Origin: Akkermansiaceae bacterium
Lineage (GTDB): Bacteria; Verrucomicrobiota; Verrucomicrobiia; Verrucomicrobiales; Akkermansiaceae
Direction of reading: 5' to 3'
DNA length: 37,303 bases
Assembly: GCA_021200315.1 (NCBI GenBank)
Contig: JAJQGU010000008.1
Span: 1 to 37,303, forward strand
Below the pieces are notes generated by a model. That model worked only from the letters and a program-made list of their open reading frames with translations. It ran no database searches and was not told where the DNA came from. Positions within the stretch are counted from its first letter, which is position 1. Each line of letters opens with the position of its first letter. This document shows, one piece after another, positions 218 through 24,179 of the stretch. Made by a program: the position numbers and the translations under genes.

Positions 218-1648
218 CTATTTTATCCAAATATTCGGCATTGTTACCTTAAACTCGCGGTCTATTAGATTACATTGCTCTTTGATGATACCTCTTCTTC
301 TCTTCGCTGGCTCAAGGCAGTATGTGTTAAACTCTTCCTTGTCGACATCAGATAGCTTTTCCCAATGCGGGAACAGTAATTTCATGTATGCGACAGCTGT
401 GCGTTTCACAGCTGTGAAATCGCGAATATCAGCATTACTCTCGAATCCGATAAGTTGATCAAATAAGAGGTTATACGAGTTTTGTGTTCGTAACACATGC
501 AGGATTTCTGAGAAGTACTCTACATTGATTGTCCACCCATTGTACGTAATTCCTTTATGGACTCTCGGGATATGCCAGCCTTCGATGAAACAATGGAATC
601 GATCGAGTAGGGCTGATTCTCTAAATGCGTTAGGTAATGAGTCAAAATAACGATCACTCTTCGGTGTCCTATCCTCATTAAGAGGGATGTTTCCCATCAG
701 CATAAGACCACACTCAGATGAAAACTCATTGTTGTCGATTGTCGTTTTTCCAGATTCTAGGTATGATTTAAGTGCAGCCTGTATTTCAGCAGGCTCCTGA
801 AAAATAATGGTTTGAATTTCATCGAAAGCGGTGACATCGTGGTTCTTGATAATGCCGTTCTGTTGCTTGGTCTTATCGTAAAAAAGTTTTGCGCGTGTCA
901 CCTTGCCACCGCTAACAAGCCATCCGTATTTGGAAATATTACCAAAGACATAAGACTTGCCTGTGCCTTTAGGTGCTAATTCTATGGCATTTAAGCGAGG
1001 CTCTATGAAAATCAAAAGACGAGTCAAGATTTCAAGCCTTTGAGCAAGAGATTTGAAGCCATCAGTATCATACTCCATAGCAGAAAGTAAAAAATCAATC
1101 CACTCAAGTGTGGTAAAGGATTTTCTAGCCTCTTTGTAGTACTCGATATCAACTGTTTTATATGGCTTAAACGCCTTGTAGGCAATCATTTCGACGTGGT
1201 TGTCTTTGCCGCCGTCATTTGGCAGCACGGCAAGTTTAATAATTCCCCACTTCTCTCCGTCAACGAGTTCTCCTTTGTGCTTTTCGTATACATAGGGCGG
1301 GATTTGCCCCTCTTTAATTTTTATACCCATATCAGGTATCCCAAAGCGGCGGATATTTTTAACTAGGTCGATATAGACGACAAAGCGGCAAAGAAGTTGG
1401 ATTTCTTCTCCTGCTCCTAAGCGGTCTTTAACTTCTGATTGCTTTTGGGGGATAACAGTTCGTAAGAAGTGTAGAAGTTCGTCTTTACGGATACTGCCAT
1501 CAGGGTTGATATATCTGCGTATAATGAAGTCTTTAACAAAGGAGGGGAGATTACATCCCGCAAATAAGCCGTCAGCAGCATCGCGGTCTTTCAAAATCGC
1601 CATCGCAGAGAAAACTTCACGAATTTTTTGTGCTGTATTAGTGTTCAT
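218..1648 (-). CDS. brxL: BREX system protein BrxL, short form without Lon protease domain
   Basis: This is a 476-residue AAA+ protein and the last gene of the BREX operon. The Walker A motif is APKGTGKS near residue 228 and a Walker B-like AFDEIQ lies near residue 274. They are followed by MLMGNIPLN and a FRESALLDRFH stretch typical of the BrxL/Lon-related ATPase core. Type 1 BrxL proteins are about 680 residues and carry a C-terminal Lon-like domain; here the protein stops after the ATPase and a helical tail. Shorter relatives of about 450 residues are known in the family, so this may be natural rather than truncated. Its ATG lies 3 bp after the pglZ stop, so it is almost certainly cotranslated. 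In the family, BrxL is a DNA-binding hexameric ATPase needed for phage restriction; that role is inferred here. Base composition is AT-rich like the rest of the operon. Confidence 0.85.
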   Translation of the reverse strand: MNTNTAQKIREVFSAMAILKDRDAADGLFAGCNLPSFVKDFIIRRYINPDGSIRKDELLHFLRTVIPQKQSEVKDRLGAGEEIQLLCRFVVYIDLVKNIRRFGIPDMGIKIKEGQIPPYVYEKHKGELVDGEKWGIIKLAVLPNDGGKDNHVEMIAYKAFKPYKTVDIEYYKEARKSFTTLEWIDFLLSAMEYDTDGFKSLAQRLEILTRLLIFIEPRLNAIELAPKGTGKSYVFGNISKYGWLVSGGKVTRAKLFYDKTKQQNGIIKNHDVTAFDEIQTIIFQEPAEIQAALKSYLESGKTTIDNNEFSSECGLMLMGNIPLNEDRTPKSDRYFDSLPNAFRESALLDRFHCFIEGWHIPRVHKGITYNGWTINVEYFSEILHVLRTQNSYNLLFDQLIGFESNADIRDFTAVKRTAVAYMKLLFPHWEKLSDVDKEEFNTYCLEPAKRRRGIIKEQCNLIDREFKVTMPNIWIK

Positions 1649-1651: not shown

Positions 1652-4072
1652 TTAATCAAATAAGTCGGTTTCTTCTTCTGCTCCTGTTTTTACGATCAAA
1701 GTATCAACTTGTTCAAAAGATGCTCCGATGCGCAAGATTACCTTTGTTTCCGTTTGCTGTATATTATCAACTTTAGGGCATTCAAAAGTAGATTCATCCA
1801 CCTTTTGCAGCGTATATTTCTTACAGTTGTATTCTATTTCTATTGTTGGATAAGCTGACGAGGTGATGCCTTTGATTTGATATTGTATATTTGATCTTAT
1901 TGGGGAGATTTTCTTTGTTAAGATTTTAGCATTGATACGAGGACTCACCTCCTTATCAGACACAATAATGATAGGGACTAATACCTCCTCAGGCGTTGCT
2001 CCGCCGTGAGCTCCTATGCCAAGAGCTGTCTTAGATGAAATGGAGTCGTGAGTGAGAGCGCAAGCCGTTAAGCCATCGCCAGTGGTGATCATATACACCT
2101 TGTCTTGTGTAAGTCTATCTATAATAATTTCTGCACAACGCCCCGCATGGTCACTCTTAATTCCCGCAAAGTTCAGCCCTTTGCCGTATTGAGCAAGATA
2201 AGTCAAACCGTGGTCTGAAATGAAAGCTATTTTTTTACCTTGATATTTTTTGAGTGCTTCTTCGACACAGTTTCGAACCAATTTGAACTCTTCGTCTATA
2301 TGAGTGGGGAAAGCTTTATTTTTATGGGCGTTAGCATCTAAGTCACCCATTTTTTTCAACTTATCTCCTGCTGCAAGTTCTTCAAGCTTTTTCTTGTTGT
2401 TCTCGGTGCGAGTGGGGAGTTCCGATGTCGCAATGTTTACCTCGTTTAAGTACATGCCGTAGAATCCCCCTTTTTCTTTAATGACTTGAATAATAAAAGG
2501 AATCCAGTCTACGCCGAGACCATCTATCCAAAGAAAAATATCTATATCAGATCTACCATGCAAGAGCGTTTTCGTTGTTTTGAAGTCATTATGCCAACGT
2601 TCAAATAACATTGCTGATGAGCTATGCTCTGAAAGCATCCGGCTAAGGTTTTCTGATATTGTTTGCGCCGTTTTAGATAATTTGTACTCTGAAAAGTAGC
2701 TGTTAAGCCATGTTTGGCCGGAAGGAACAGGCAGATTGTATTCTGAGGTGTAGTAGTGATAGAAATCAGGGAAAGCTTGCTCAACGTCTTCTCTGCGTAT
2801 TGCTCCTTTCCCGAACCAGTTAATGACCAAATGTCTCTCTTTGGGGGTGTATGCCGTGACGTATTGAAGAGCTGTCTGATAGCCCTGGTTGTCAGCTATT
2901 TCAATGAGTTTGTTTTGGAGGTGAGCAGTATCTTGTTCAGAAAGAGTTATGTCTTCTCTTAACGCTTCGTATGCGGTTTTGAGAAGTTGTCTTCTATCTG
3001 GTATAAAAACGGAATTTGCCGTATCTTCGAAGATATTGAGTTCAATGGCGGAGATTAAAGAATCGAAAGAAAGTGAAGAGCAGCTTTGGATTGCTCGACT
3101 AAAATAGGTGTCCTTTTTTTGGGGTATGAGGAGATAAAGCAATTTTAGAAGCCATCGGGAGTAGTCCGGCTTCGGACTCGGACATTTTAGCCAGTTTGCA
3201 AGTACGTCTGCCTCTAGATTAGAAAAATTAGAATTAAATGTATTGCGTAAAAAGGAAAGAGGATCAAAGTTGTTAGTAAAGTCTATTTCAGACGAAAAGG
3301 TATTCCAAAAGTCGTTATCGCATTTATGTGGTGGCATAATGCTTAAGTCTTTGTCAATCAACATTGATAGCAAAGATTTTATATCAGGGTAAAACTTGAC
3401 ATCTATCGCATTATCACTTGTTGGTAGTGAATTCTTCTTATAGATATCGGAAGCGGTTTTGGATGAAAGTATAATTTTGTGTTTAATCTTGTTATTCGGC
3501 TGCCAAAGATTGACCCAATCTTTAAGGCTTGAGCAAATGCTGTATTTGTTTGACAATCCATTTATATTATTTAGTTTAACGTCATCTGTAAGAATAAGAC
3601 TATAACAATTGCCAGCCTGATTGCAATTATCCCAAATAACGATGGCGGGGTCGTTTACAAAGTTATACATGCGACTCTGCTGTCCTATAAAGGGAAGGTA
3701 TACACGTTGTTGTTCGTCGCGACTCTCTATTCCTTTTATAGTTGTGATGAAACACTTGAACTCATTGTCATTATAAAATCTGGCAATCTCCGAAATAGGA
3801 AATACAACCAAATCATTTTTACCGGAAGAAATTTTTCCCTTTATCCAGTCACACAATGATTTCATTGTTAGCTGCTTATCGTCTGACAAAGCTTCAGCTA
3901 GGGGGCACATAAATGCACCATCTTTGGAACGGCGTGTTTGTATGAACGTATCAAAGTTTTTGTAATCATCGAATAGAACAAAACGACAAGGGAAACGATT
4001 GCCCCCACGCTTCTTGTCATCGTTTATAGCTGCTTCCAGGTCTTTAAGAGATTGATATGGAAAGACGCTCAT
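1652..4072 (-). CDS. pglZ: BREX alkaline-phosphatase-superfamily protein PglZ
   Basis: This is an 806-residue PglZ-family protein. Metal-site motifs of the alkaline phosphatase superfamily are visible in the C-terminal half: WIDGLGVDW near residue 518, ISDHGLTY near residue 620 with a second SDHAG further on, and GIGAHGGATPEE near residue 689. The N-terminal half is divergent and shows nothing I recognise. PglZ is the one protein shared by all BREX types; its biochemical role is not settled, though metal-dependent nuclease or phosphodiesterase activity has been proposed for the family. The start codon lies 29 bp inside the 3' end of brxC, and the stop is 3 bp from brxL, which indicates translational coupling through the whole operon. 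No frameshift or missing metal ligand is apparent. Confidence 0.92.
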   Translation of the reverse strand: MSVFPYQSLKDLEAAINDDKKRGGNRFPCRFVLFDDYKNFDTFIQTRRSKDGAFMCPLAEALSDDKQLTMKSLCDWIKGKISSGKNDLVVFPISEIARFYNDNEFKCFITTIKGIESRDEQQRVYLPFIGQQSRMYNFVNDPAIVIWDNCNQAGNCYSLILTDDVKLNNINGLSNKYSICSSLKDWVNLWQPNNKIKHKIILSSKTASDIYKKNSLPTSDNAIDVKFYPDIKSLLSMLIDKDLSIMPPHKCDNDFWNTFSSEIDFTNNFDPLSFLRNTFNSNFSNLEADVLANWLKCPSPKPDYSRWLLKLLYLLIPQKKDTYFSRAIQSCSSLSFDSLISAIELNIFEDTANSVFIPDRRQLLKTAYEALREDITLSEQDTAHLQNKLIEIADNQGYQTALQYVTAYTPKERHLVINWFGKGAIRREDVEQAFPDFYHYYTSEYNLPVPSGQTWLNSYFSEYKLSKTAQTISENLSRMLSEHSSSAMLFERWHNDFKTTKTLLHGRSDIDIFLWIDGLGVDWIPFIIQVIKEKGGFYGMYLNEVNIATSELPTRTENNKKKLEELAAGDKLKKMGDLDANAHKNKAFPTHIDEEFKLVRNCVEEALKKYQGKKIAFISDHGLTYLAQYGKGLNFAGIKSDHAGRCAEIIIDRLTQDKVYMITTGDGLTACALTHDSISSKTALGIGAHGGATPEEVLVPIIIVSDKEVSPRINAKILTKKISPIRSNIQYQIKGITSSAYPTIEIEYNCKKYTLQKVDESTFECPKVDNIQQTETKVILRIGASFEQVDTLIVKTGAEEETDLFD

Positions 4073-7000
4073 ATTCTTCTAGAAAGTTTATGATTTCATC
4101 TATAACGGAAGAAATCTGCTTTTCGCAAAGAACTTCTAGAAGTTTCTTTGCTTCATCTAGGGAATCTATGTTTTTAATCCTGGTTCTTGCCTTTTGAAGA
4201 GCCTCATCCGACGGCGGTTTAGGAGGATCAGGAGGAGTTGGCTTTGGTGGTGGCGGTGGTGGTGGAAAGGGTGGTTGAGTACTACTTATCCTCCACTCCA
4301 TAACAAGTTTAACCACTTCATCTTCTTTCCAAAGGCCGATAGTTGATGGCGAATGTTGAGTGATGTATTCCAACGCTTTGTCTACTTCTTCGCGGCCACT
4401 AATGTGCAGTTTTGGGTTTGACGTTAGAAAATTCCTTAAACCTTCTCCGAACGCCTCTTTACAATTGAGAATGTTTTGCATCTCAAACCTGTATGTGTTA
4501 ATGAGGGAAAGAGTCTTGTCGTAGAGAGAAGAATTGTCCGACTCACGCTCTCTGCAAATTGTAGAGATATTGTCTATAAGCGTCTTCATCTCGTCGTTCG
4601 GAGGGGTAAGACCGCAGAATACCCCTTTTGGAGTGTATTTTATTGCCCATAGAGGAGCCTTCACTTCGTCCGCAAATTGTACGGTAATAAGCCCCCTAGC
4701 TTTGGCTAAGCTTGCTGATTCTGTCAAGTCCTTATCTAGGCGATTTAAATTAAATAGGCAGACAAACTCTTTGCAGAGTTTTCCTTCTTCGGGCTTTTGA
4801 AATTTGACCTCCAATGCGCTGTTAGGCTTATTATTTTCCCACGCTTTAAACAAAGCGCTTATGCGGTTAGTTAAATCCAAAGATTTCAGAGGCTTTCCTT
4901 GCGTATCAAAGATTTTGCCAACACATGAACGACGGAGTGAGAAAGCAACCATTGCCATGCAAGCGAAATTCTCAAAAAGACCGTAAGGAGGCTTTGTTAA
5001 AACTTTAAACTTATCTGCAAAGTTGAACGGAACGCTTTTGTCCGCAGAAGCAATAATGCTAGCCACTTTATCATCGACTTGTTTGAGCGGATGGTCTGGT
5101 GCTACATTAGTCTTCCATTTCCATTTATCATCGAGTGCACCTTGAATCAAAAACTTTATCGGGCTCATTGGAGCGTTGAGGTTGTTGATGAAGTCGTCAG
5201 GAGAAGGTGCGTCTAGCATCCTCCTGACAATATTTTTGGAATTTTGTTTTTTCCAGAAAGTGCCATATTTTTGGGAATTTGCGAATGCGGGGTGAGCATC
5301 AGGTGCGTATGGATACAGGGCAGGCGTTATCTCAGAATTTACTTTTTGAGGCCATCCTGAAAATGTACATGAGAACTCCTTGATGCCCTTGATGTATACA
5401 GAAGCTGTACCTCGTAGCAGATCAGCTATCCATTCTCTTACCATGCCGCTCGCATTCTCCATATGCGTTTGGGCCTGTCCGGCTAATCCGTGATTTGACG
5501 CGCATTTGTAATTAGCTTGATATTCAATGAAACGCTCGTATTCTTTAACAGAGAAAGTCCTGTCAAAAACGATAAAAACGATTTGTTCCAATTCCTTATC
5601 AAACTCATCTTGCATACATTTCGCGGCGAATGCTTTCAATTCTTCACGTTCCTCATCGTCTTTTGAAAATAGGAAGGCAAAAAACAGCTCGTATGACTTT
5701 GCTGCTTTTCTCGCCTTTTTAATCTCCAGTAATGTTCTATTCTGAAGTCTTGAAAAACAGCCGTATTGATAGGGTCTGTTGATTAAATTGAGACTTTTTG
5801 CAAACGTGTCTTTCTTAGAGTCAATGAGCTTTACGATTTTGCAAGTGTGTTCAAATTCTTTTCGGAGGCTGTTTTTTAACTCTTCAATTTCATTAGTCGG
5901 GAGCGCTGAAAATTGTACCGAGAAGAGACCGCTTGGCGAGCGTTGAATTATCCCGTTTCCGTTAAACCACGTCAGGATGTCATCAATATGCGCCTCGTAG
6001 TCAGTGCCAATAAACAATCTTTTAATGTTTTCTTCTGATGGAGTTACAAGACCGTTATTATTTTCAGCAGATATATTGTTAAAAGCATTTAGGAGGAGAG
6101 TTGCTTTAAATACAGCTAGGTAAGAAGCTCCTTGATTTGCAACCTTTTGTTGATGAGAGTAGAAGCGTTCTGTGACCGCACCATAACTGGTGATGTCCCC
6201 CTGAAAAACCTTGAGTACATAATCCCACAAGTAGTCTGCTGTAATGGTGGCCTTTTTTGAGAATTGCTCCTTGTCGGATAAAAATGATTTAATATCGTCA
6301 TTTTGTCCCAAAAATTCAAAGACGCTGCGACTGGATGAGCCTACAACGGTAGCGTAATGTGCTGCAAGATTAGCCGTGCCTGGGTGTAGAGGGAAGAGAT
6401 TACGAATGTCTTCTTTCGTTGAGTTTTCATCGTTACTTGTTTGGGAGAAAATCTCCAATAATTCTGGATGATCCTTATAAAACGCTTCACTGAGGTCCTT
6501 GTGTTTATCTGCATTGCTTATACTGAACTTTCGGGACATAATTCGAAAAGCAGAAACCGGCTCCATGTTATACTGCATCTTATGGTATCTGCCATCGGTC
6601 TGTTTTTGCTGATCGTTATTCATGTGATCGAAGGCAGATGGATGCGATATTAAGAAGAGATACGAATTATTATTATCACCCTTGGCGAACTCTTCCGCTA
6701 TGGTTTGCAGTGCTTTTAGTGCGGGGGTGCCAATCGTGCTCATCACGTCGGTAAACTCATCCCATACAATCAAAAAGCCGTTATAGTCTCCCTCGGCGGC
6801 AAGAGCATTTTGCGCCTCAATCAGCCAAGAAGTGATATTGTTATTATTTAACCTAAAGCTCAAGGATTCATCACGCAGTGCGCTCGTAGCAGCATTGTAT
6901 GCCTTCGTATCATACCTCCTTAACATATCTACTAACTGATTACAGTCTGACACTATGTTGGACAAATCGTTGTTCCTTTTAATACGCAGAGACCACATTT

Positions 7001-7529
7001 CGTCGTGAGATTCGATGTTATCCGCATAATTATCAAATTCAGTATGGATACGTTCGGAGAAAGTGATCTGGTGCTTTTTCAACGTGTCTGCAACACTCCG
7101 TTGGATGACCAAAGCCAAATCGCTCTCTCTGGTCATGGATTCAAGCCCCTTGATGTTGACGGGAAGAAGGCGTTTGTTTTCGCGGAGTGTTAATATATCT
7201 TGCCTGTCTCGCCGTATTTCAGCCTTCTCACCTTGGTATTCGTTATTTACCCATTGCTCAATTTCCTCCTTTTTATCGCCGAGCAAGTGGCTGATGACGG
7301 CGGCAGCGTGACTCTTTCCCGTACCATAACTGCCGTATAGCCAAAATGATTTGTGGTTGTCGATGTCGTTAGCGCGAACGGATTTAATAACGATTCTTAA
7401 AATGTCGTTAAACTGTTTATTTGCAATAAATGAAGTCCATTCTTTAGCACTTGCTTTGTCTGTTATATCAAACACAGCTCTACAGGCTCGTATCTTTATA
7501 ATGTCTTCGTAACAGGTAGCCGTATCCAT
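4044..7529 (-). CDS. brxC: BREX ATPase BrxC (type 4 variant)
   Basis: This is a 1161-residue P-loop protein. Walker A is GSYGTGKSHAA (residues 66-76) and a Walker B-like segment FLIVWDEFTDVM lies about residues 247-258. The order and length fit the large BrxC/PglY ATPases that form the scaffold of BREX. Near the C-terminus, about residues 1090-1115, there is an unusual proline-rich stretch with a run of seven prolines. It links the body to a short helical tail of about 45 residues that ends inside the pglZ start region. The gene starts 37 bp after brxP stops, with no clear Shine-Dalgarno sequence before the ATG. Family knowledge says BrxC is essential for defence; DNA or nucleotide binding at the P-loop is inferred. 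The length and both ATP motifs suggest it is intact. Confidence 0.9.
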   Translation of the reverse strand: MDTATCYEDIIKIRACRAVFDITDKASAKEWTSFIANKQFNDILRIVIKSVRANDIDNHKSFWLYGSYGTGKSHAAAVISHLLGDKKEEIEQWVNNEYQGEKAEIRRDRQDILTLRENKRLLPVNIKGLESMTRESDLALVIQRSVADTLKKHQITFSERIHTEFDNYADNIESHDEMWSLRIKRNNDLSNIVSDCNQLVDMLRRYDTKAYNAATSALRDESLSFRLNNNNITSWLIEAQNALAAEGDYNGFLIVWDEFTDVMSTIGTPALKALQTIAEEFAKGDNNNSYLFLISHPSAFDHMNNDQQKQTDGRYHKMQYNMEPVSAFRIMSRKFSISNADKHKDLSEAFYKDHPELLEIFSQTSNDENSTKEDIRNLFPLHPGTANLAAHYATVVGSSSRSVFEFLGQNDDIKSFLSDKEQFSKKATITADYLWDYVLKVFQGDITSYGAVTERFYSHQQKVANQGASYLAVFKATLLLNAFNNISAENNNGLVTPSEENIKRLFIGTDYEAHIDDILTWFNGNGIIQRSPSGLFSVQFSALPTNEIEELKNSLRKEFEHTCKIVKLIDSKKDTFAKSLNLINRPYQYGCFSRLQNRTLLEIKKARKAAKSYELFFAFLFSKDDEEREELKAFAAKCMQDEFDKELEQIVFIVFDRTFSVKEYERFIEYQANYKCASNHGLAGQAQTHMENASGMVREWIADLLRGTASVYIKGIKEFSCTFSGWPQKVNSEITPALYPYAPDAHPAFANSQKYGTFWKKQNSKNIVRRMLDAPSPDDFINNLNAPMSPIKFLIQGALDDKWKWKTNVAPDHPLKQVDDKVASIIASADKSVPFNFADKFKVLTKPPYGLFENFACMAMVAFSLRRSCVGKIFDTQGKPLKSLDLTNRISALFKAWENNKPNSALEVKFQKPEEGKLCKEFVCLFNLNRLDKDLTESASLAKARGLITVQFADEVKAPLWAIKYTPKGVFCGLTPPNDEMKTLIDNISTICRERESDNSSLYDKTLSLINTYRFEMQNILNCKEAFGEGLRNFLTSNPKLHISGREEVDKALEYITQHSPSTIGLWKEDEVVKLVMEWRISSTQPPFPPPPPPPKPTPPDPPKPPSDEALQKARTRIKNIDSLDEAKKLLEVLCEKQISSVIDEIINFLEEYERLSISIS

Positions 7530-7566: not shown

Positions 7567-10092
7567 TTAATAGTTGAGCAGTGATTTCAGAGCACTTGAC
7601 GCGGTGTAGTTATCAGAAAGTGTGATATGGTTGAGCCCCATGTTTAGCGCAGCGGTAAGGACTCTGTTTTTTGTGCTCGATAGGTACCTTAATGCGCGGG
7701 AGAGGTCATTTTGCGAAGTTCCAAATTCGCGGTATGGCCCGCATTCAGCGGCTTCGCCATATAGGTCAGAAAGTTGAAACATGCTGCTCTTGTTTTCTTG
7801 ACCATATTTAAAGAGAGAATAAGCAACTGCTTCTGGAGAGAGTTTTGCGTATGCGCTTCTTGAAATTTGCTCTCTATCTGCGCAACATTGGTTAAAATCG
7901 ACTCCTATTGGAGAGTATTTAAATGTTTGGATTAAGGCTTGAACAGCGTATTTAATAGTAGTGTCTTTGAAGAAGTATGCAAGGAAGTATTCGAGTGCAA
8001 GTTGATCGAGGTTCTTGCGCGTTATATTAAATCCAACATTGATGGTATTTACATACCATTTCATTAGGGGGCTGTTATGCACTAGGTTGATATGGATAAG
8101 CTCCCACAGAAGCTTTTGACCCTTTTGGCCATTTTGGCTAATTTGGCTGCAGAGTTTACCAAACTCGGTCAACAAACCTTTATCGCCTATGATTTCAGCG
8201 TCTTTGAGCCAAGCCTTAAAGCTGGGGAGTTGTTTCACTCCAAGGCTATTTTCTTCCCAATAGCCTTCTGTATCAGCAAAGAATTCGTCAAGCCATGCTG
8301 CATGTAGACCAAAGGTGCCGTATTTCGATATTTTCATATTAGCAGAGGTGTTAGCGGTGGGTTTAATCAAAGAGTCAGCGACAATGCATCCAACATTATG
8401 GTATTCGAGACACCTATGACAATGTATGCACCTCGATTTGTCTATCTTGACTTCAGGGTAGACAGACAATGCACCGGTTGGGCATTCTAATTCACAGGCT
8501 TCGCAGTTTATGCAGTACGTAACTTTATTGACGGTTTTTCTGAGAAGCGTTCTTAACTGGACGTTGTTATTATCCTGAACAATAAAGGTAAAATCGCTTT
8601 GCGAGGTTCCGTAAGAAATTTCGTAGTTGTAGACATTTTTGTTGAAGAGTAAATCACCAACAAAACCATCAGAGGTTTCTTGTCTACTGTATGCACATAA
8701 AGCAGGTAGCCAGTCAAAAATATCTTTCTGTGCGCCCTTAACTTCGGCAACCCACTCTATGGGTGAGGTTTCTATTCTGAGAGTTGTAGGGTTTTGTGAA
8801 AACTTACCGCTGCTCCGAAGTTTCCATTTTCTCTCGGTTATGTACTCGTGTTTGTTCGGAATATTTCGCTGCTCGGTAATTGCTTCGATTCTGGATAAGA
8901 AGGGTTTTAATTCATTCGGGTAGCAGGTGTTCACAATCATATCATCCCATGGAGAGCCGAATGGACATAAAATACACCCAACGCGAGGCTTACCAACTCT
9001 ATACGCAGCATTGACAGGTAGGTTATGCCTAAATAGGTAAAGAAATACCTCAGTGGTGTTCCAGCGAAGTATTGGTCGAGCGTTTATCACAAAATTGTGT
9101 TTCACTCCTTTCCCAATTCGCGCATATTCGCTTCTTTTATTAGACTCTTCTGCTCTAACACCTTCAAATGCGAGAAACTTCGGATTTTTCTTTTTTATTC
9201 CCGAGCGGAGAAGTCGATAAAGAGGGGAGGTTTTCATCACGGAACAACACCATCTATGGCTGTCGCTGGGAGTTCCGATTTTATCCCAATAGTTAAGTAC
9301 AGATTCGTGATTTTTTGCTGTGAGAAAATTCAGCATGGGAAACCGCGTATGATATAAAGCTTGCGTCTCTTCGTATAGCTGAAGAGACGCGGGTAATTCA
9401 TATCCAGTATCGCTGTATATCACTTCAAAGCTGTTTGGCGGAATTGCTCGTGTGCATAAATCCAAAACAACTTGGGAATCTTTGCCGCCAGAAAATGAAG
9501 CGATGAACTTGTCAATTTTGCTGGAAAGGATTATCTTTTTGCCTGTATATTTAGCTTTGTCCAGAGGAACAATATCAAAACTGTCGCAATTTTCCTGAAC
9601 CAATGCCATTTTCTGTTTTGATTGCTTTTCTACCTTGCAAATCAACGACTCAAAGTCAATCTTGTTTGATTCAGACTTGTTGTATGCCTTATTTACACGA
9701 ACGTAGAAAATGTACGTGTCTCGAATGAACTCTATAGCTTCATATTCAAGCATAAACATTATATCCTCGTTTCGCCTGAGCATTGCTGTCATATCAACAG
9801 GTATAAGCTTGATGGAGCTGTTAGTATCCGCTGTGAACTTTATTGCAGGCTTTGTGTAAATGTCCGCCCCTTTGACGGTAAACATTAACTGCCCACGATA
9901 ATAGTATTGCTTATTGACAGCCCACATGAGTGGCTCGGGGCATTGGGGGTACTCCCAACCAAATCGGGGAAGTTCTAACAAATCCAATTCCTCAAAAAAG
10001 ACAGGGCGTGGTGCTATACCGACAGTCTGCGAAGAGTTGTGCGTTGTCAGCAAAACGCCGCCAGTTTCTGTGTCCCATTCTATTTTGTACAA
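7567..10092 (-). CDS. brxP: BREX type 4 PAPS reductase/ferredoxin-like protein BrxP
   Basis: This 841-residue protein marks the operon as type 4. An N-terminal region of about 190 residues is followed by a PAPS-reductase/N-type ATP-pyrophosphatase domain: the PP-loop SGGKDS at 201-206, SDTGYE near 227, HRWCC at 279-283, EGVRAEES near 310, and GCILCP at 372-377. A two-cluster 4Fe-4S ferredoxin module follows (CINCEACELECP at 527-538; CIHCHRCLEYHNVGC at 555-569), then about 270 residues with no recognised domain. It resembles the ATP- and cysteine-dependent sulfur-transfer enzymes that include DndC. The start codon is TTG: the conserved family start MYKIEWD begins there, an in-frame stop lies about 30 bp upstream, and no ATG intervenes. 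It is the first gene of the operon. A role in DNA or nucleotide sulfur chemistry is inference. Confidence 0.93.
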   Translation of the reverse strand: MYKIEWDTETGGVLLTTHNSSQTVGIAPRPVFFEELDLLELPRFGWEYPQCPEPLMWAVNKQYYYRGQLMFTVKGADIYTKPAIKFTADTNSSIKLIPVDMTAMLRRNEDIMFMLEYEAIEFIRDTYIFYVRVNKAYNKSESNKIDFESLICKVEKQSKQKMALVQENCDSFDIVPLDKAKYTGKKIILSSKIDKFIASFSGGKDSQVVLDLCTRAIPPNSFEVIYSDTGYELPASLQLYEETQALYHTRFPMLNFLTAKNHESVLNYWDKIGTPSDSHRWCCSVMKTSPLYRLLRSGIKKKNPKFLAFEGVRAEESNKRSEYARIGKGVKHNFVINARPILRWNTTEVFLYLFRHNLPVNAAYRVGKPRVGCILCPFGSPWDDMIVNTCYPNELKPFLSRIEAITEQRNIPNKHEYITERKWKLRSSGKFSQNPTTLRIETSPIEWVAEVKGAQKDIFDWLPALCAYSRQETSDGFVGDLLFNKNVYNYEISYGTSQSDFTFIVQDNNNVQLRTLLRKTVNKVTYCINCEACELECPTGALSVYPEVKIDKSRCIHCHRCLEYHNVGCIVADSLIKPTANTSANMKISKYGTFGLHAAWLDEFFADTEGYWEENSLGVKQLPSFKAWLKDAEIIGDKGLLTEFGKLCSQISQNGQKGQKLLWELIHINLVHNSPLMKWYVNTINVGFNITRKNLDQLALEYFLAYFFKDTTIKYAVQALIQTFKYSPIGVDFNQCCADREQISRSAYAKLSPEAVAYSLFKYGQENKSSMFQLSDLYGEAAECGPYREFGTSQNDLSRALRYLSSTKNRVLTAALNMGLNHITLSDNYTASSALKSLLNY

Positions 10093-10398: not shown

Positions 10399-10581
10399 AT
10401 CGGTCTTCCTCTTAGCCCGCGAAATGGCCCCAGCAAATTGAATCTGAGCCTTTTTCATCCAAATCGAAACTTTTGCATAGACTCTTGAACTGAAATTTGT
10501 TAAAAACCCTTGCTTCACTATGAGGTAAGAAATATCCTCCTTTATAGATGTTCCCATAATTCCTCCAACAAAATTAACACT
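10399..10581. other. Non-coding DNA between the repeat and the macrodomain gene
   Basis: No gene is seen. Positions 10421-10446 resemble an internal segment of the 207-bp repeat next to its first palindrome (compare GAAATGGCCCC with GAAACGGCCCC in copy 2), so part of this stretch may be a decayed third copy. No clear promoter or Shine-Dalgarno sequence precedes the gene at 10582. Confidence 0.35.
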
Positions 10582-11091
10582 ATGCCATTACACATTATCC
10601 AAAACGACATTACCAAGATGGAGGTGGATGCTATTGTCAATGCAGCCAATACTGCCCTGCTGGGTGGAGGTGGCGTGGATGCCTGCATTCACAGCGCTGC
10701 GGGGGCATCTCTTTACGAGGAATGCAAAACCCTTGGCGGATGCGAAGTAGGGAGCGCCAAAATGACTGGTGCTGGCAATTTGCCATGCAAATACGTCATC
10801 CATGCCGTGGGCCCGCGCTACCGCGATGGGAAACACGGAGAGGCCGCAACACTCGCCTCCTGTTACAGCACTTCACTTCGACTCGCAGCTGAGGCAAAGT
10901 GCCAAACCATCGCCTTCCCTCTAATTTCTTGTGGTATCTATGGCTACCCCCTCAAAGAGGGCATACAAATCGCATGCGACACCATCAACGACTTTCTACG
11001 CGAGCACGATTTGACTGTCTACCTAGTCATCTTTGATAGCAAAACGGTGCAATTTTGCAAAGAGCGGGAGCTCCTGCCAAAATTCTGCTGA
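10582..11091 (+). CDS. Macrodomain protein, probable O-acetyl-ADP-ribose deacetylase
   Basis: This is a 169-residue single-domain macrodomain protein. The family signature is clear: an N-terminal strand and QNDIT, VDAIVNAAN (catalytic/substrate Asn), LLGGGGVDACIHSAAG (ribose-binding loop), then TGAGNLPCKYVIHAVGP, IAFPLISCGIYGYP (phosphate loop) and VIFDSKTVQFC near the end. This is the YmdB/MacroD subclass, which hydrolyses O-acetyl-ADP-ribose or removes ADP-ribose from proteins. I chose the ATG at 10582 because the conserved domain starts right after it; an upstream TTG at 10510 would add 24 unrelated residues. The gene stands alone between the 207-bp repeat and an ankyrin remnant. A link to phage defence or toxin reversal is possible from its position but not shown. 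Confidence 0.9.
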   Translation: MPLHIIQNDITKMEVDAIVNAANTALLGGGGVDACIHSAAGASLYEECKTLGGCEVGSAKMTGAGNLPCKYVIHAVGPRYRDGKHGEAATLASCYSTSLRLAAEAKCQTIAFPLISCGIYGYPLKEGIQIACDTINDFLREHDLTVYLVIFDSKTVQFCKERELLPKFC

Positions 11092-12048: not shown

Positions 12049-13557
12049 TCATTTCTTACCCTTCTCATCTTTTGCTGCTTGTTTCTCTTCCTTCTCATGG
12101 CGATTGATGCCCTCGATGAGGAGCTTGTCGAGTTCCTGAGCGAGGGGCAGAACGTTGTAGTGAGGGTCATCAGCGATGAAGTAGGCGGCAGTATTGCCAC
12201 GCATGAAGTAGATAGCGGATTTCTCGCTCCCCTCAGCGATGGAGCCATCGGAAGCTAAGCGTGGCACGGTGCAGATGTCCCAATCCCCAACCAAGCGCGG
12301 GTTGATTTGCATGAGGTTTTTTATATCTGATTTTTCCATCTTCTTCACCTTGGCATCGACAACAATTCGTCTCCTCACTCCAGTTTCATTCTCATACAAT
12401 TGAAATCCAAGCAAAGCGTAGCGTGCATCAGTCGGGTTGAAAGCGTGATAAATGCAATAGCGCAAGAGCACATTTTTGTCCTTCATCCGTGCCCAGAGGC
12501 AATACTTGCCTCCTCGTTGTTCAATCATCGTCATTCCTCTCGTTAAAAGAGACTGCACAAAATCACGGCAGCCCACCCCCGTGTTCACATTGGGAATGAT
12601 GTTCTTTTCTTCCAAAGGATTGAGCCCCAATTCTTCGGCAACACCGTTGACCTGATCCGCCCAGAACAGGTCAGCACTTTCATCCCATTCCTTGTTCTTA
12701 TATCGCTTCCACGCATTTTCGGCGAAGCAGGGTGTGTTGCCCCTAGTATTCCTATCCCAACGCACATGATGCTTCTCGCGTATGGCATCATCTTCTTCAT
12801 AGAACTTCTTAGCTTTTTCTATATCCTTGGGTCGCCTTTCTTTATTATGCACGATTGTTAATATTTCGTGGCAGATTTGCTTCATTTCATCTACAGTTGG
12901 CTCTTCTGCAATGTATGGAAGAGCTCTATCGGGAGGCACGGGGTGAGACACATGATTCACATATCTCTCACCATAAGATTTCACTTGTAATTCATAACGA
13001 TACTCATAATATCTCACTAGTTCCCTTTCGCTTTTGACCTCATCGCCCTTATACTGACTCCAGCGATTTTTTAGTCGTTCTACATAGAAAATATTATCTT
13101 CTTTTACTAACCAATCTGCGTCGCTAAACTTTAATCTCTCAGGATTCATGGGCCTAAAACAGCCTTCCTCCAATCGCTCCACCAATGGTATAGGAGGCGT
13201 TTCCTCCTTCCATCTCCATATTTCGATTTCAAAGGCTCGATGCCCTTGCATATCAAACGCGGCATTTTTATAAAATATATATCTACCTATCGTCACGCCA
13301 GACAAAAGAGAATCAGCATCTTCTGCTTGACAGTTGATATTATAGACTTCAGTCAATTTCGCATATTCTTCTTCGCTCACACCTACAAATTGAAGAAGAT
13401 TCTTTTTGAAAGACGGGGGTGGTGGCTCTATGTATAAATTATTTGTTACAAGTCGAAATTCATCGCGCTCGGTAGTTGCTTCAGCCAAACATAAGTTTGC
13501 AATAGTTAGAGCAACCATCAGGGAACAGCATATTTTAATGAGCTTCTTTTTCATCAT
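12049..13557 (-). CDS. Secreted protein of unknown function (502 aa)
   Basis: I do not recognise this family. The N-terminus is a good Sec signal peptide: MMKKKLIKICC, then a hydrophobic core with a probable cut after LCLA near residue 25. The rest is soluble, rich in charged and aromatic residues, and ends in a lysine/glutamate-rich tail. Cysteines are scattered (for example GVGCRDFVQSLLTRG and RYCIYHAFN in the C-terminal half). It is the last gene of a three-gene operon, 25 bp after the 841-residue gene. The tight layout suggests the three products act together at the cell surface or in the periplasm, but no function can be assigned. Two ATGs are adjacent; the first is listed. Confidence 0.75.
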   Translation of the reverse strand: MMKKKLIKICCSLMVALTIANLCLAEATTERDEFRLVTNNLYIEPPPPSFKKNLLQFVGVSEEEYAKLTEVYNINCQAEDADSLLSGVTIGRYIFYKNAAFDMQGHRAFEIEIWRWKEETPPIPLVERLEEGCFRPMNPERLKFSDADWLVKEDNIFYVERLKNRWSQYKGDEVKSERELVRYYEYRYELQVKSYGERYVNHVSHPVPPDRALPYIAEEPTVDEMKQICHEILTIVHNKERRPKDIEKAKKFYEEDDAIREKHHVRWDRNTRGNTPCFAENAWKRYKNKEWDESADLFWADQVNGVAEELGLNPLEEKNIIPNVNTGVGCRDFVQSLLTRGMTMIEQRGGKYCLWARMKDKNVLLRYCIYHAFNPTDARYALLGFQLYENETGVRRRIVVDAKVKKMEKSDIKNLMQINPRLVGDWDICTVPRLASDGSIAEGSEKSAIYFMRGNTAAYFIADDPHYNVLPLAQELDKLLIEGINRHEKEEKQAAKDEKGKK

Positions 13558-13582
13558 GGCTTTAGTTTGTATCGTTTTGAGA

Positions 13583-16108
13583 CTATTTCTGCGTACTTGC
13601 TTTTTCTTTAGGTGTAAAGCTTTCGAGTTTTATCATGCAGGGCAATATTCCATTACCAGTATAAGAGGAACCAAAATCAGATCTTGGATCTATCCATCTT
13701 TTCCTCGTCGAATTATATAGAGGTGGAGTGGAATCGTAAATAGTAGATTTGTAAACGTTAAACACATGATTAGGAGCCTTGGCTATACAAAGTGTTTTAT
13801 CTTTTTCAATCCCACAGATTCTTGGAAGAACCGCAGACAAACACGCCACGTCTGCGCATATTACTTTAGGATCATTGTCACCTCGCTTAGTTTGATTACT
13901 AGCAGACTTTGTTTCAAAGCCAGTCAAGTGAAGAACCATTCTTTCTATATCCAAAACAAACTCTTTACCTGAAAGTGGAATTGGCATATCTGAGATTGGC
14001 AGAGAATAGGTTTTATCCCTCTGAAGGCTATAAAATGAACCCAAATATGATTTCCCTTTATGCAATACGTTATCCAAATTATTCCATTTCAAAACGGGAT
14101 GATACGTAGTAAGAGAATAAAGAGCAGTAGAAATTGCTTCTTGTATGGCGGATTTTTGGGGGTTATTATTTGCATACACTTCTTTGCACATCGCTTTTAG
14201 AGCATCTTCCCATACTAGCACAGGATGTTCATCAACCGCGCCCTCAATATTCACAGATCCATCGATTAACCCATCTTTTCGCCACGTAGAATCATCAAAA
14301 ATTAAATACACATCTTTAAGCGTAGTATATGCATAATCTGTTGGATTTTCCTCTATTACCTCGTTACCATGTTTATCGTGCTTAAGCCTATGCAAAGACC
14401 ACTTGTTGCGCATTTTGCAGTAACGAATTTTATCGGGTAAACTATTTTCCATCTGCATATCCACCTCATAAATATCATACAGCGAAGTATGGCCTGATAT
14501 CTTTATTCCACTTGCTAACTTTATTGCACGTTCTTTCTTTGTTTTACTTTCTTCCTGTTTCCTCTCGATTTGATTCAAGTTATCAGCCAAATTTTCCTTG
14601 GTATATTCATAATATGTACCAGTGTCTAATACCTCACTTCGTCCCAAAGCATCTTTTTCTGCCTTTAGCGACCACGAATCTCCCAAGTCCTGTCTCACTG
14701 CAACAAGAACCCTAAAGGTAACTCCAGACGCTCTGGTTTTCAGCGCAATGGGTGATTGCTCGGGTTTTCGACAAAATCCTTGAATCTTATTGCATCCATC
14801 TGTCCACTTGTAGTGCCATTGGTTATCCTCTCCTGACACTATTGTGTAATAAGTTGGTTCTTCTTTTTCACTACCTCTCTGTCCTTGTCTATGCTTGATG
14901 TTGCTGAACTCTGCGCGAATAACACGATTCTGTAAATCTTGTGCATGCGTTTGATCAGTTGGCTGAAATTGCTGCGTAACGGTTATACCATCAGGAGTGG
15001 CTGCATCTTGGGGGCCATCTTTCCAATCACTCGTAATTGCAAGAATATAAAATTCCTTATTTTGCTTGACTTCGGCAAGGACGACAGCCTTAAGCAAAGT
15101 TCCTTTATCCTGTTCTTCTACGATTGCCCAATACTTATCGTTAAGATGATTTTGAGCCGTTTTTGTCAACCTCACTTTCGCAGAAAAGGGCAACAAGTGG
15201 AAGGATGGAGGTGCTACTTTTTTCTTCGATTTATTCGAAATTTTAAAAAATGAATCTTTCAAACGTGAACTGCTGTGCAAATATAAGAAACCGTCATATT
15301 GATTCTTGCTCTCATTGATTGCTTTTTGAAATTCTTTTCCCCAATTTAAATCATTTTTCTTCCTACTCTCTTTGGCAATTTTTATGCCCTTATTTCTAAG
15401 CTTATCAAACATTTCCCATTCTAATGGCCAGAATTCACCCAACTCCGCCTCAATAGAATTTAATTTTTGAGGGAGTTTTTTATCTACCCATGTACTTATG
15501 ACTTGATATTCCTCCTCACCATATTTTCTATCTAACATAGCTACCCATGGGCACTTTGAAAAATCCTTTACTGGCGGCTTCTCTAAGATTTGTTGGTAAA
15601 TTTCAGGTTGGACATTTCCGTATGGATGAAATTTCTTCCACTTGGTAAAGTCAATATGAGCTAAGGCCCGAACTCTCCCCTTTATTTTCAAACCTGCGTG
15701 AGATATAGCATAAAATGATGAAGAAGGTCTGCACCAAAACGTTGGGTTCCCTTTATAAGCAGAGAAATAATCTAGGCATCCCCAAACGCACTCCCAGTGG
15801 ATTTGCGCATTTTCTTCCTTATACTTCACTCGATACGGGTGAACGATTTTGATTTGCGCGCCGAGTAAATCTGGCACCTTACCATTCTCCACTTGTGGTG
15901 CGTAAAAAAGCTGCGCTCCATCTAAGCCCGCTGGATTATCTACATAATCACTTGACTGTACCTCATCTAACAGATGCGGCGTAAGTGAAACAAAATGAGA
16001 TTCTATATCCGCATTCGCTCCCTGACTTGCTGAGCCAGCACTCTGCCCCCACGCGATGCCTAGCAGGGAGAGCATCGTGCACCATCTTATCTTTTTTTCT
16101 ATGTTCAT
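13583..16108 (-). CDS. Secreted protein with a possible transglutaminase-like C-terminal domain (841 aa)
   Basis: A signal peptide is present (MNIEKKIRWC, hydrophobic core to GIAWGQSAG, cut about residue 24). No family is recognisable over the first 640 residues, which contain several W/C-rich segments. In the last 120 residues the order of motifs fits a transglutaminase-like cysteine-protease fold: VICADVACLSAVLPRICGI (Cys751), then NHVFNVYK (His781), then RWIDPRSDF (Asp807). This matches the general C...H...D layout with CxDxA and a W-x-D-P tail. The match is by eye and the domain call is an inference. The ATG lies 1 bp after the stop of the beta-propeller gene, so the two are cotranslated. 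Base composition is AT-rich, unlike the central region. Confidence 0.7.
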   Translation of the reverse strand: MNIEKKIRWCTMLSLLGIAWGQSAGSASQGANADIESHFVSLTPHLLDEVQSSDYVDNPAGLDGAQLFYAPQVENGKVPDLLGAQIKIVHPYRVKYKEENAQIHWECVWGCLDYFSAYKGNPTFWCRPSSSFYAISHAGLKIKGRVRALAHIDFTKWKKFHPYGNVQPEIYQQILEKPPVKDFSKCPWVAMLDRKYGEEEYQVISTWVDKKLPQKLNSIEAELGEFWPLEWEMFDKLRNKGIKIAKESRKKNDLNWGKEFQKAINESKNQYDGFLYLHSSSRLKDSFFKISNKSKKKVAPPSFHLLPFSAKVRLTKTAQNHLNDKYWAIVEEQDKGTLLKAVVLAEVKQNKEFYILAITSDWKDGPQDAATPDGITVTQQFQPTDQTHAQDLQNRVIRAEFSNIKHRQGQRGSEKEEPTYYTIVSGEDNQWHYKWTDGCNKIQGFCRKPEQSPIALKTRASGVTFRVLVAVRQDLGDSWSLKAEKDALGRSEVLDTGTYYEYTKENLADNLNQIERKQEESKTKKERAIKLASGIKISGHTSLYDIYEVDMQMENSLPDKIRYCKMRNKWSLHRLKHDKHGNEVIEENPTDYAYTTLKDVYLIFDDSTWRKDGLIDGSVNIEGAVDEHPVLVWEDALKAMCKEVYANNNPQKSAIQEAISTALYSLTTYHPVLKWNNLDNVLHKGKSYLGSFYSLQRDKTYSLPISDMPIPLSGKEFVLDIERMVLHLTGFETKSASNQTKRGDNDPKVICADVACLSAVLPRICGIEKDKTLCIAKAPNHVFNVYKSTIYDSTPPLYNSTRKRWIDPRSDFGSSYTGNGILPCMIKLESFTPKEKASTQK

Positions 16109-16109
16109 C

Positions 16110-18443
16110 TTATTGATTATCTGCCGCTTGTCTCTTGAGCTCTTCTAGGCTTGGTTTGGGTGTGCCTTTGTAGTCATCTCGGTATTGCTTCCAGTCTATC
16201 TCTTTCCTCTCGGCGTAAAGTAATTCCTTACGCGTCAGGTTGACGGTCCCAGGGCTAAAGGGGCGGTATTGCTTGGAGCGGGCGTAGAGATACGCGTCTT
16301 GCACAGCTTCCCACGCTTCGTCAAGTGACTTGGCGTATGCTTTCTCAGAGCGCTCTGTCCAGAGGTAGAGGTGCTTGCGCCATATTTTTTTGAGATTGTC
16401 GTTCCCCTTGAGGCTGCGGTAGCTTGCGAGGGCGGCGAGGCGCGAGAACGCAAGGTAGGCGGGGTCGATTTTCTCGGGGCTGCGCGTGATACTCCAGAGG
16501 CGGAGCGCGTCTTGCGCGTCTGCGCTAGGGGCGCCGTGTGCGATGCATACCTTTTCCTCCCACGGCACAGCATAAATGGGGGCACAGTGAAACTGGGTGG
16601 GCGTTTCATTGAGGTTGGAGAGGAAGACGCCGTTGAGGATGGTGTTGAAGGAGTGATTGCGACATACGCGCACCATCAAGACGCGAGGCCCCTGCACGAA
16701 AAAGTTTTTCCAACACCCGCTACCTGCAAAGTCAAAGATGCGGGTGCGCGCTAGGACGGGACGGTGCTGGATGGAGGGCAGGTCTTGCTGGGTGCTGTTT
16801 TCATCTCCATCTCTCACTTCGACGAGGAAGTCTCGGTAACCATTGCGCGCGTGGCGACCGTTGGGGTTGTAGAAGTAGAGGGAGAGCATGTAGCGCCCCC
16901 CGGGTATCTTGACTTTCGCCCAGACATCGGGGCCATCTTGAGACTGGGGATATTCTTCGCCGTGGTCATCCCACTCGGCTTCAGAGCGCGTTCCCGCATC
17001 GGGATTCCAGAGTACGTTGAGATTCTCGTGATCATCCTCCTCGTGGAACCAGAGACGCAGGTGGTCATTCTTGGCGCGTTTGGGGCCTACCATGCCCTCG
17101 AGCCAGCCCGGCTTGGGGAGGCTTTTGTCAAAGCAAAAGGCGATGTCGCAGGGAGAGGCGCCGGCATTGAGATGAGCAAGGCTACGCCCATAGCGCAAGC
17201 ACCAGTTGCCACGCGTGTACCAGTCTTCAAACCAGAAGAAGACGGCTTTGCCGGTGGGGGCGGCGGGGTGTTCTTTGAGTGCGGCGAGCATGCTTTGGAG
17301 TTCTTTCGTACTGGCGGGGCTGGGTGGCATCGTATGTGAGGCACGGGTTTTAGGCGTGAGCTGCAGCTCGGGGAGCTGCGCCACATAACGCAGGCCTCCA
17401 CCGTAGGTGACGGCATAGAGCGCGCCTTTCGGGAGGCGGACGAATTGCCTGACCCACTTGGCGCGGGCGTTACGAACGTTGTTAAAACCGCTGACCGCTT
17501 TTTTGGGAGCGAGGGTCTGGGCGTCGAGCAACTGGACTCCCTGCTGGCGGTAGCCTACCCACAAGCCCTCGGAGCTGGGGTAGAGTGCGGTGACATAGTC
17601 CTCTAGGAGCAGGCTTTCAGGCTGTGTCGAATCTGGCTGAGTTTTTGCCAAGGGCACTTGCAAGCCTTTGTTTTTATCTGCGTAGTCTTTACCACGCACA
17701 TAGAGCCACTGTTCGTTTTGGTAGAGGGCGAGGCCGCAGGTGCTGCCGTAGTAAGTCTTGCCGTTGAGCGTGGCGATGGCGTTGCCGAGGTTGGAGGGGA
17801 TGCCGCTCCCCGTGGAGGTCTGGGGCTGGCGGCTGAGAGAAGCGGGTTCTACATACCAAGAGGTGGAGGTCGAGCGCCATTCCTTGGCACGTGCGGGCAG
17901 TACCCCTACGCCCCCGCAGGCAAAGGAAGCCCAGAGCTTACCTTGCTCATCGTACGCAAGAGAGGTGGCGATGGCATCTCCCATGCCATTGGCTGGGGTC
18001 TGGTGCGACCATGTGCGCTCATTTCGCATGGAAATGCCTCCCGAGGTGGCGATGGCTAGCTGCTTCTCGTGGGCGGCAATCGCAAAGACTCGTTCCCCCG
18101 CTAGCCCATCTTCACGGGAAATCCGTTGCCATGACTTGCCATCCCAGAGAGCAACTCCTTGGTTGTCAGTACCTACCCAGATGGTGCCGTATCCGTCTTC
18201 GGCGATGGCGTAAGCGTTGAGGGTGGCTGGAAAGCCTTTTTTCTCGTGCATGGCTTCCCACGTTTTCCCATCAGAGCAACGGAAGACACCCTTGCCCTCA
18301 GTGGCAATCCACACGGAGCCATCCGAGCCGGTGAGGGCGGCCATCACATGCGGGCTGGGGCTCGGCGGCAAGGTGTTTTCGACCGCAGCCATCACGGTTT
18401 GGAAGAATGCTATGAAAGTGAATGAACAGAGTTTGACGCGCAT
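16110..18443 (-). CDS. Secreted two-component-regulator-type beta-propeller protein (777 aa)
   Basis: The protein opens with a signal peptide (MRVKLCSFTFIAFFQTVMAA). Residues about 30-350 contain repeated propeller blades of the regulator-propeller type: GSDGSVWIATEGKGVFR, GYGTIWVGTDNQGVALWDG, LWASFACGGVGVL and GLWVGYRQQGVQLL. In two-component hybrids such blades form a periplasmic ligand sensor, but here no membrane helix, kinase or DNA-binding domain follows. The second half is a different, unrecognised region with a jelly-roll-like segment (WAKVKIPGGRYMLSLYFYNP) and a helical C-terminus. It is the first gene of the secreted operon. A promoter-like pair lies just before the ATG. A soluble sensor or binding protein is the likely role; the ligand is unknown. 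Confidence 0.8.
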   Translation of the reverse strand: MRVKLCSFTFIAFFQTVMAAVENTLPPSPSPHVMAALTGSDGSVWIATEGKGVFRCSDGKTWEAMHEKKGFPATLNAYAIAEDGYGTIWVGTDNQGVALWDGKSWQRISREDGLAGERVFAIAAHEKQLAIATSGGISMRNERTWSHQTPANGMGDAIATSLAYDEQGKLWASFACGGVGVLPARAKEWRSTSTSWYVEPASLSRQPQTSTGSGIPSNLGNAIATLNGKTYYGSTCGLALYQNEQWLYVRGKDYADKNKGLQVPLAKTQPDSTQPESLLLEDYVTALYPSSEGLWVGYRQQGVQLLDAQTLAPKKAVSGFNNVRNARAKWVRQFVRLPKGALYAVTYGGGLRYVAQLPELQLTPKTRASHTMPPSPASTKELQSMLAALKEHPAAPTGKAVFFWFEDWYTRGNWCLRYGRSLAHLNAGASPCDIAFCFDKSLPKPGWLEGMVGPKRAKNDHLRLWFHEEDDHENLNVLWNPDAGTRSEAEWDDHGEEYPQSQDGPDVWAKVKIPGGRYMLSLYFYNPNGRHARNGYRDFLVEVRDGDENSTQQDLPSIQHRPVLARTRIFDFAGSGCWKNFFVQGPRVLMVRVCRNHSFNTILNGVFLSNLNETPTQFHCAPIYAVPWEEKVCIAHGAPSADAQDALRLWSITRSPEKIDPAYLAFSRLAALASYRSLKGNDNLKKIWRKHLYLWTERSEKAYAKSLDEAWEAVQDAYLYARSKQYRPFSPGTVNLTRKELLYAERKEIDWKQYRDDYKGTPKPSLEELKRQAADNQ

Positions 18444-20349: not shown

Positions 20350-20417
20350 CGCCCTCTATCATGCACGGGTGAGCACTCCGAGGCAAGAGAAGATCGCGTC
20401 ACGCCCCCCCCCCGAAA

Positions 20418-20638
20418 GTGCGGAGCGAATTCATTACGCGCCTCATCCACGCCGCCGTTTCCCAATCGCTCCCGATAGCAGCCGGGGTTCGACGCCGCGG
20501 CAACTTTCATTTTCTTCACAGGGAACTGGGCTCCATCAACAAACTGCGAATCGACCCCGACTCCGTCGGGACGCCGTTCTGCTACCCGTTCCGCACCAAC
20601 CCCGCCGAACTGCGGGGCGCGAGCGGAGATGAGGCAAT
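20418..20638 (+). pseudogene. Fragment of a DegT/DnrJ/EryC1-type aminotransferase
   Basis: About 73 readable residues resemble a C-terminal part of DegT-family sugar aminotransferases: RSEFITRLI, then RRRGNFHFLHRELGSIN, and IDPDSVGTPFCYPFRTNPAELRGA. In that family the last part precedes the conserved segment ending in a W-P motif, which is absent here because the 207-bp repeat begins at 20639. No upstream part exists: a run of ten Cs (20404-20413) and then ruvA come first. So this is a both-ends-truncated fragment. Such enzymes act in surface-polysaccharide synthesis, which fits the flavoenzyme remnant that follows. Confidence 0.5.
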
Positions 20639-20845: not shown

Positions 20846-20918
20846 TTGCCGCGCCGATTTCGTTCCACATCGGGAATGAATGGACGCAAAACGCTTACTC
20901 ATCTCTCCCCGCTTTGGC

Positions 20919-21141: not shown

Positions 21142-21163
21142 TTATCTTGCACGATTCACAGCG

Positions 21164-24171: not shown

Positions 24172-24179
24172 GGCGGCGC

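What the first reader, a model, noticed from the sequence alone, without database searches (positions are those of the whole stretch)
7567..10092. BrxP combines a sulfur-transfer PP-loop, paired cysteines and a two-cluster ferredoxin
SGGKDS, HRWCC, GCILCP and two 4Fe-4S motifs in one chain point to ATP-driven sulfur chemistry with built-in electron supply. DndC, which makes phosphorothioate DNA, belongs to the same superfamily. The self-mark of this system could therefore be a sulfur-based DNA modification instead of methylation. The last 270 residues have no recognised domain and might bind DNA.
Basis: inference. Interest (0 to 1): 0.75.

Follow-up and report, generated by a model that had tools for sequence, protein, structure and literature searches.

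The report
BrxP, sulfur-marking enzyme of BREX type 4
This gene belongs to a known bacterial virus-defence system that is reported to mark the cell's own DNA with sulfur instead of methyl groups; the guess was right in outline, and the 'unknown' end of the protein has the fold of a known DNA-binding and nicking protein of a related sulfur-marking system.

Summary
The protein is real, but on the minus strand (10092 to 7567, TTG start, 841 aa). It heads an intact brxP-brxC-pglZ-brxL operon: BREX type 4. A sulfur (phosphorothioate, PT) mark for this system is already in print, seen here through citing papers. Two details change. (1) HRWCC and GCILCP match the CC...CxxC motif of [4Fe-4S] APS reductases; with eight ferredoxin cysteines, all 12 are invariant in 61 of 61 aligned BrxPs, so three clusters are likely and no other cysteine is conserved. 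(2) The 'unrecognised' last 260 residues have the SspB fold (Z 20.5; next, BrxA, 9.3). BrxP is thus SspD, ferredoxin and SspB in one chain. The operon is a low-GC import related to Bacteroidota loci; the genome has a second, 29%-identical type 4 operon with its own cysteine desulfurase. New side leads: in 19 of 75 related loci a stand-alone DNA sulfur-binding domain sits between brxP and brxC (absent here), and phage contigs carry BrxP's catalytic half without BrxC. Whether this locus makes PT, and how electrons and sulfur flow, is untested.

The parts
7567..10092 (-). brxP, 841 aa, TTG start
   Evidence: one open frame; PADLOC BrxP 9e-264
9475..9492 (-). PP-loop SGGKDS, residues 201-206
   Evidence: sequence; S201, G203, K204, D205, S206 invariant in the 61-row alignment
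8962..9504 (-). PAPS-reductase domain, residues 197-377
   Evidence: Pfam PF01507 E 1.1e-30; APS/PAPS reductase structures Z 15.6-17.4
9244..9249 (-). C282 C283, first half of the predicted third [4Fe-4S] site
   Evidence: 61 of 61; aligns with CC of 7lhr
8965..8976 (-). C373 xx C376, second half of that site
   Evidence: 61 of 61; aligns with CxxC of 7lhr
8371..8523 (-). two-cluster ferredoxin segment, residues 524-574, eight cysteines
   Evidence: Pfam Fer4; eight cysteines 61 of 61
7570..8352 (-). SspB-fold C-terminal part, residues 581-841
   Evidence: SspB 6juf Z 20.8 whole model, Z 20.5 for residues 590-841 alone
4044..7529 (-). brxC, 1161 aa
   Evidence: PADLOC BrxC 2.1e-264, SspC 1.3e-24
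1652..4072 (-). pglZ of BREX type 4, 806 aa
   Evidence: NCBIfam BREX_PglZ_4 542.6 bits, cut-off 140
218..1648 (-). brxL, 476 aa
   Evidence: TIGR02688 414.3 bits, cut-off 329.3

Best explanation
BrxP is the writer of a BREX type 4 system and makes phosphorothioate in the host DNA backbone. It joins in one chain what Ssp systems keep in two proteins, SspD and SspB. Shown here by sequence and predicted structure: domain order, motifs, operon and kinship. Inferred mechanism: the SspB-like C-terminus binds, and perhaps nicks, the target DNA, and BrxC, an SspC-like ATPase, loads or moves the complex. The PP-loop domain uses ATP to activate the backbone phosphate. Sulfur taken from cysteine by a desulfurase encoded elsewhere in the genome is delivered at an APS-reductase-like [4Fe-4S] cluster (C282, C283, C373, C376). 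The fused two-cluster ferredoxin supplies the two electrons that bring a sulfane sulfur to the sulfide level. PglZ and BrxL act against unmarked DNA.
For: Complete brxPCZL operon by curated models. SspD and SspC matches of BrxP and BrxC. SspB fold of residues 581-841 well above every other fold. APS/PAPS reductase fold and cysteine motif. 12 invariant cysteines, 61 of 61. Three desulfurase matches in the genome. Relatives with the same operon carry a stand-alone DNA sulfur-binding domain between brxP and brxC, 19 of 75 loci. Literature passages: brxPCZL makes PT, type 4 corresponds to SspBCD.
Against: No PT measurement for this locus; the primary PT report was not read. No desulfurase in the operon, unlike 14 of 20 loci of the other group. 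The window lacks the sulfur-binding gene and none was found in its genome. A C-terminal sequence profile finds no SspB. Nickase residues were not tested. The electron role of the ferredoxin rests on motif alone; PMC12839542 calls its role unclear.
Confidence: 0.8

Rival explanations
1. BrxP thiolates a base of DNA or tRNA, not the DNA backbone, in the way of TtuA or NcsA.
For: TtuA (Z 13.1) and NcsA (Z 12.4) share the PP-loop fold and use a [4Fe-4S] cluster.
Against: APS/PAPS reductases fit better (Z about 16); SspB-fold DNA part on the same chain; sulfur-binding domain gene in relatives' operons; brxPCZL reported to make PT.
Confidence: 0.06
2. BrxP is an assimilatory APS/PAPS reductase caught up in the operon.
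For: Fold and CC...CxxC motif.
Against: Family scores far below curated cut-offs; the genome has a separate short reductase frame next to CysD- and CysN-like frames on contig C33; fused DNA-binding part.
Confidence: 0.02
3. The locus is a recent import that is not active here, for want of a partner desulfurase or of expression.
For: GC 0.39-0.42 in the operon against 0.61 for 20000-37303; no full-length BrxP match in any of the 36 same-genus genomes searched.
Against: All four frames are open and all motifs kept; three desulfurase matches in the genome; housekeeping desulfurases can substitute according to PMC12839542 (passage).
Confidence: 0.1
4. The four cysteines of HRWCC and GCILCP carry a persulfide or form a disulfide and do not bind a cluster.
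For: A sulfur-transfer enzyme needs a sulfur carrier, and no cysteine outside the 12 is conserved.
Against: The pairs align with CC and CxxC of APS reductase, whose role as cluster ligands is established knowledge.
Confidence: 0.15

Closest known systems
BREX type 4 (brxPCZL)
   Same: All four genes, in the same order, by curated models
   Different: Nothing essential; this member lacks a linked desulfurase and the sulfur-binding gene of some relatives
Ssp system (SspBCD)
   Same: SspD-like domain, SspB fold, SspC-like ATPase
   Different: SspD and SspB parts fused with a ferredoxin between them; PglZ and BrxL in the operon
DndC
   Same: PP-loop superfamily; FRWC/HRWC motif and CxxC (for DndC)
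   Different: BrxP has tandem CC; DndC as described in PMC12193691 (passages) has one C there and a loop cysteine as fourth ligand; far below the DndC cut-off (23.2 against 290.4 bits)
APS reductase (CysH, [4Fe-4S] type)
   Same: Fold and CC...CxxC motif
   Different: CysH family cut-offs not reached; fused ferredoxin and DNA-binding parts

Membership tests
BREX type 4 | brxP, PAPS-reductase protein | tested here: met
   PADLOC BrxP 9e-264
BREX type 4 | brxC ATPase | tested here: met
   PADLOC BrxC 2.1e-264
BREX type 4 | type 4 PglZ | tested here: met
   BREX_PglZ_4, 542.6 bits, cut-off 140
BREX type 4 | brxL | tested here: met
   TIGR02688, 414.3 bits, cut-off 329.3
BREX type 4 | gene order P-C-Z-L on one strand | tested here: met
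   window coordinates; same order in related loci
BREX type 4 | phosphorothioate in host DNA | not testable with these tools
   needs mass spectrometry or iodine cleavage
Ssp system | SspB fold | tested here: met
   Z 20.5, rmsd 3.0 over 245 residues; not found by sequence profile
Ssp system | SspB nickase activity or residues | not tested
   active residues not at hand
Ssp system | separate sspB, sspC, sspD genes | tested here: not met
   SspD-like and SspB-like parts are one chain
DndC | curated DndC score | tested here: not met
   TIGR03183 23.2 bits, cut-off 290.4
CysH (APS/PAPS reductase) | curated scores of assimilatory reductases | tested here: not met
   NF002537 62.1 against 154; TIGR02055 50.3 against 235.3; TIGR00434 49.7 against 165.1

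The most novel reading that the evidence does not exclude
BrxP is a single-chain reductive phosphorothioate synthase: three [4Fe-4S] clusters, two of them a fused ferredoxin that drives the sulfur step, with the DNA-selecting SspB part on the same chain. Many Bacteroidota relatives of the operon also encode their own sulfur reader, a stand-alone DNA sulfur-binding domain in a variable slot between brxP and brxC, so that writer and reader of the mark belong to one BREX operon. Some phages carry the catalytic half alone, perhaps to mark their own DNA.
Probability: 0.35. Interest if true: 0.6.

Novelty: new member of a known kind. Interest (0 to 1): 0.35.

Why it matters
It places an orphan-looking protein end in a known DNA-recognition family and corrects the reading of its cysteines, which gives clean point-mutation tests of how sulfur reaches DNA. 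The stand-alone sulfur-binding domain inside relatives' operons is independent genomic evidence that the BREX type 4 mark is backbone sulfur, and such a small protein might serve to pull down or map the mark.

Tried and rejected
Sequence-profile match of the C-terminus to solved structures: none at E up to 10, so the SspB link rests on predicted structure, on the weak DUF4007 hit and on the statement in PMC12839542. A sulfur-binding domain in the window or elsewhere in its genome: none found with the 16-row profile; one search warns that an empty answer without a positive control shows little. An Mrr-type nuclease in the genome: none (7 of 14 control genomes ring). Rfam on the window: one tRNA only. 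A methylation reading was not needed: none of the four operon proteins matches a methyltransferase model. The VIA-align list of the whole model covers mainly residues 16-423 besides the SspB part, so nothing is said about the fold of residues 1-100 or 435-510. A taxonomy look-up only confirmed that Rikenellaceae are Bacteroidota.

Not read: Yuan et al. (bioRxiv 2024.06.03.597175 / PMC12914056), the report of PT by BREX type 4, not held; known here only through passages of two citing papers.

Full report
What is there. The finding's coordinates are right, but the gene runs on the minus strand. Window 10092 to 7567 is one open frame of 841 aa with a TTG start; + frame 1 is full of stops. It is followed on the same strand by brxC (7529-4044), pglZ (4072-1652) and brxL (1648-218). 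The window is a whole contig of the genome, so what lies beyond brxL is not seen.

Identity. PADLOC calls the protein BrxP (E 9e-264, residues 1-838), with weaker SspD (2.2e-14) and DndC (5.9e-8) matches; the next gene is BrxC (2.1e-264) with SspC matches (best 1.3e-24). NCBIfam names the third gene the BREX-4 PglZ (542.6 bits, cut-off 140) and the fourth BrxL (414.3, cut-off 329.3). This is a complete BREX type 4 operon.

What is known. PMC11931770 (passages) lists three gene families for PT synthesis: dndABCDE, sspBCD and brxPCZL. PMC12839542 (passages) states that type 4 swaps methylation for PT modification, that BrxC, PAPS reductase and DUF4007 correspond to SspC, SspD and SspB, that DUF4007 is often fused to the reductase, that a ferredoxin-like segment is present, and that 56% of taxa carry a cysteine desulfurase. 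The primary report was not held. So the finding's main idea, a sulfur mark instead of methylation, is right for the family and already in print.

Cysteines. In an alignment of 61 BrxPs (59 of the 85 near-full-length frames, picked by hand for diversity, plus the two of this genome) exactly 12 cysteines are invariant, and no other cysteine column passes 33 of 61. Eight are the ferredoxin's. The other four, C282 C283 and C373 C376, align with CC and CxxC of M. tuberculosis APS reductase 7lhr. That such reductases hold a [4Fe-4S] cluster on this motif is established knowledge; PMC12193691 (passages) sets DndC's cluster beside APS reductase 2GOY and gives DndC a different fourth ligand. I therefore read the 'paired cysteines' as ligands of a third cluster. 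Caution: RWCC was part of a probe that found most of these sequences.

The C-terminus. The AlphaFold2 model of the whole protein is confident (pLDDT 91.5, pTM 0.79). Residues 581-841 match the SspB crystal structure at Z 20.8. Folded alone (residues 590-841; pLDDT 95.1, pTM 0.93) the part gives SspB Z 20.5, rmsd 3.0 over 245 residues; then BrxA 9.3, and ORC, Cdt1 and FokI rows near 8. Foldseek agrees (6lb9 E 3.9e-7; nothing but SspB under 0.019). By sequence alone only a sub-threshold DUF4007 hit exists, and a C-terminal profile finds no solved structure. In three loci (L077, L078, L080) the part is a frame of its own, which fits a module.

Kinship and import. The nearest BrxPs are up to 64% identical and lie in Bacteroidota; in a quick tree of 61 rows the window protein groups with them (SH-aLRT 100). 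Operon GC is 0.39-0.42 against 0.61 for 20000-37303. In one search only the own genome has a full-length match among 59 searched; 0 of 36 of the same genus has one. The same genome has a second type 4 operon on contig C56 (BrxP 29% identical over the longest stretch), with a 635-aa gene before it and a DndA/SspA-like desulfurase after it; its BrxP groups with Bacillota rows.

Two kinds of locus. In window-type loci a desulfurase gene was seen in 0 of 36 that have BrxL and at least 1.3 kb beyond it; in the other loci in 14 of 20 (set aside for lack of BrxL or room: 13 and 11).

A reader beside the writer. In 19 of 75 genome loci that hold both genes (80 fetched, 5 incomplete) a gene of about 145 aa lies between brxP and brxC: 18 of 47 window-type loci, L071 with a broken brxP among 5 unsure ones, and 0 of 23 of the other group; in L038 it is broken in two and in L051 cut short. 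NCBIfam's PT-DNA restriction endonuclease model matches its first half weakly in 3 of 6 tested (best 4.1e-6, cut-off not reached), Pfam gives nothing of use, and a 16-row profile finds PDB 8h0l, SBDHga1, at E 1.4e-22. Lysine 28 and proline 78 are invariant in all 16; PMC6224610 (passages) names R117 (lysine in most homologues) and P165 of ScoMcrA as sulfur contacts; that these are the same positions is my inference from the 8h0l alignment. The window lacks the gene (37 bases between brxP and brxC), and none was found in its genome.

Phages. Of 26 viral loci, 14 hold BrxP-like frames without BrxC in the fetched stretch (L127 is broken up and L129 cut by the end). Five whole records of these were searched and 0 of 5 has BrxC; L111 served as positive control. 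In L122 two such genes lie in tandem in a phage-like neighbourhood, L128 has one, and the three proteins printed keep the cysteine motifs by eye.

Mechanism and doubt. Solid: what the operon is. Well supported: PT writing, the SspB fold, the APS-reductase-like cysteine site. Guess: the ferredoxin as electron source, the third cluster as the place of sulfur transfer, nicking by the C-terminus, the roles of PglZ and BrxL here. The finding scores low on novelty because the family-level claim is published; the residual interest lies in the testable cysteine assignments and the side leads.

Noticed in passing
L024:12514-12963, L040:12513-12959 and 17 more loci: Stand-alone DNA sulfur-binding-domain gene between brxP and brxC in 19 of 75 loci with both genes; profile matches PDB 8h0l at E 1.4e-22.
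   Followed up: partly
L122:8001-11351, L128:7986-9710; other viral loci among L114-L129: Phage contigs carry one or two tandem BrxP-like proteins (PP-loop plus ferredoxin, no SspB part) and no BrxC; possible self-marking of phage DNA.
   Followed up: partly
L005:2120-15659 (contig C56 of the same genome): A second, diverged type 4 BREX operon with its own DndA/SspA-like desulfurase and an unmatched 635-aa gene at its head; two PT-type systems in one genome.
   Followed up: partly
L047:12512-13909 and L065:12503-13900: In these two loci the brxP-brxC slot holds another gene (in L065 465 aa) in place of the sulfur-binding domain, so the slot is variable.
   Followed up: no
L076:10001-13105: A 1034-aa BrxP-like frame with no BrxC, PglZ or BrxL match in 22 kb.
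   Followed up: no
window 10510-11091, +: Small frame upstream of brxP whose sequence looks like a macro-domain (ADP-ribose) protein; by eye, not searched.
   Followed up: no
window 12049-18443, -: Three large genes beside the operon (502, 841, 777 aa); two have no Pfam match, the third has two-component-propeller repeats. Low GC reaches to about 16500, so the import may be larger than the operon.
   Followed up: no
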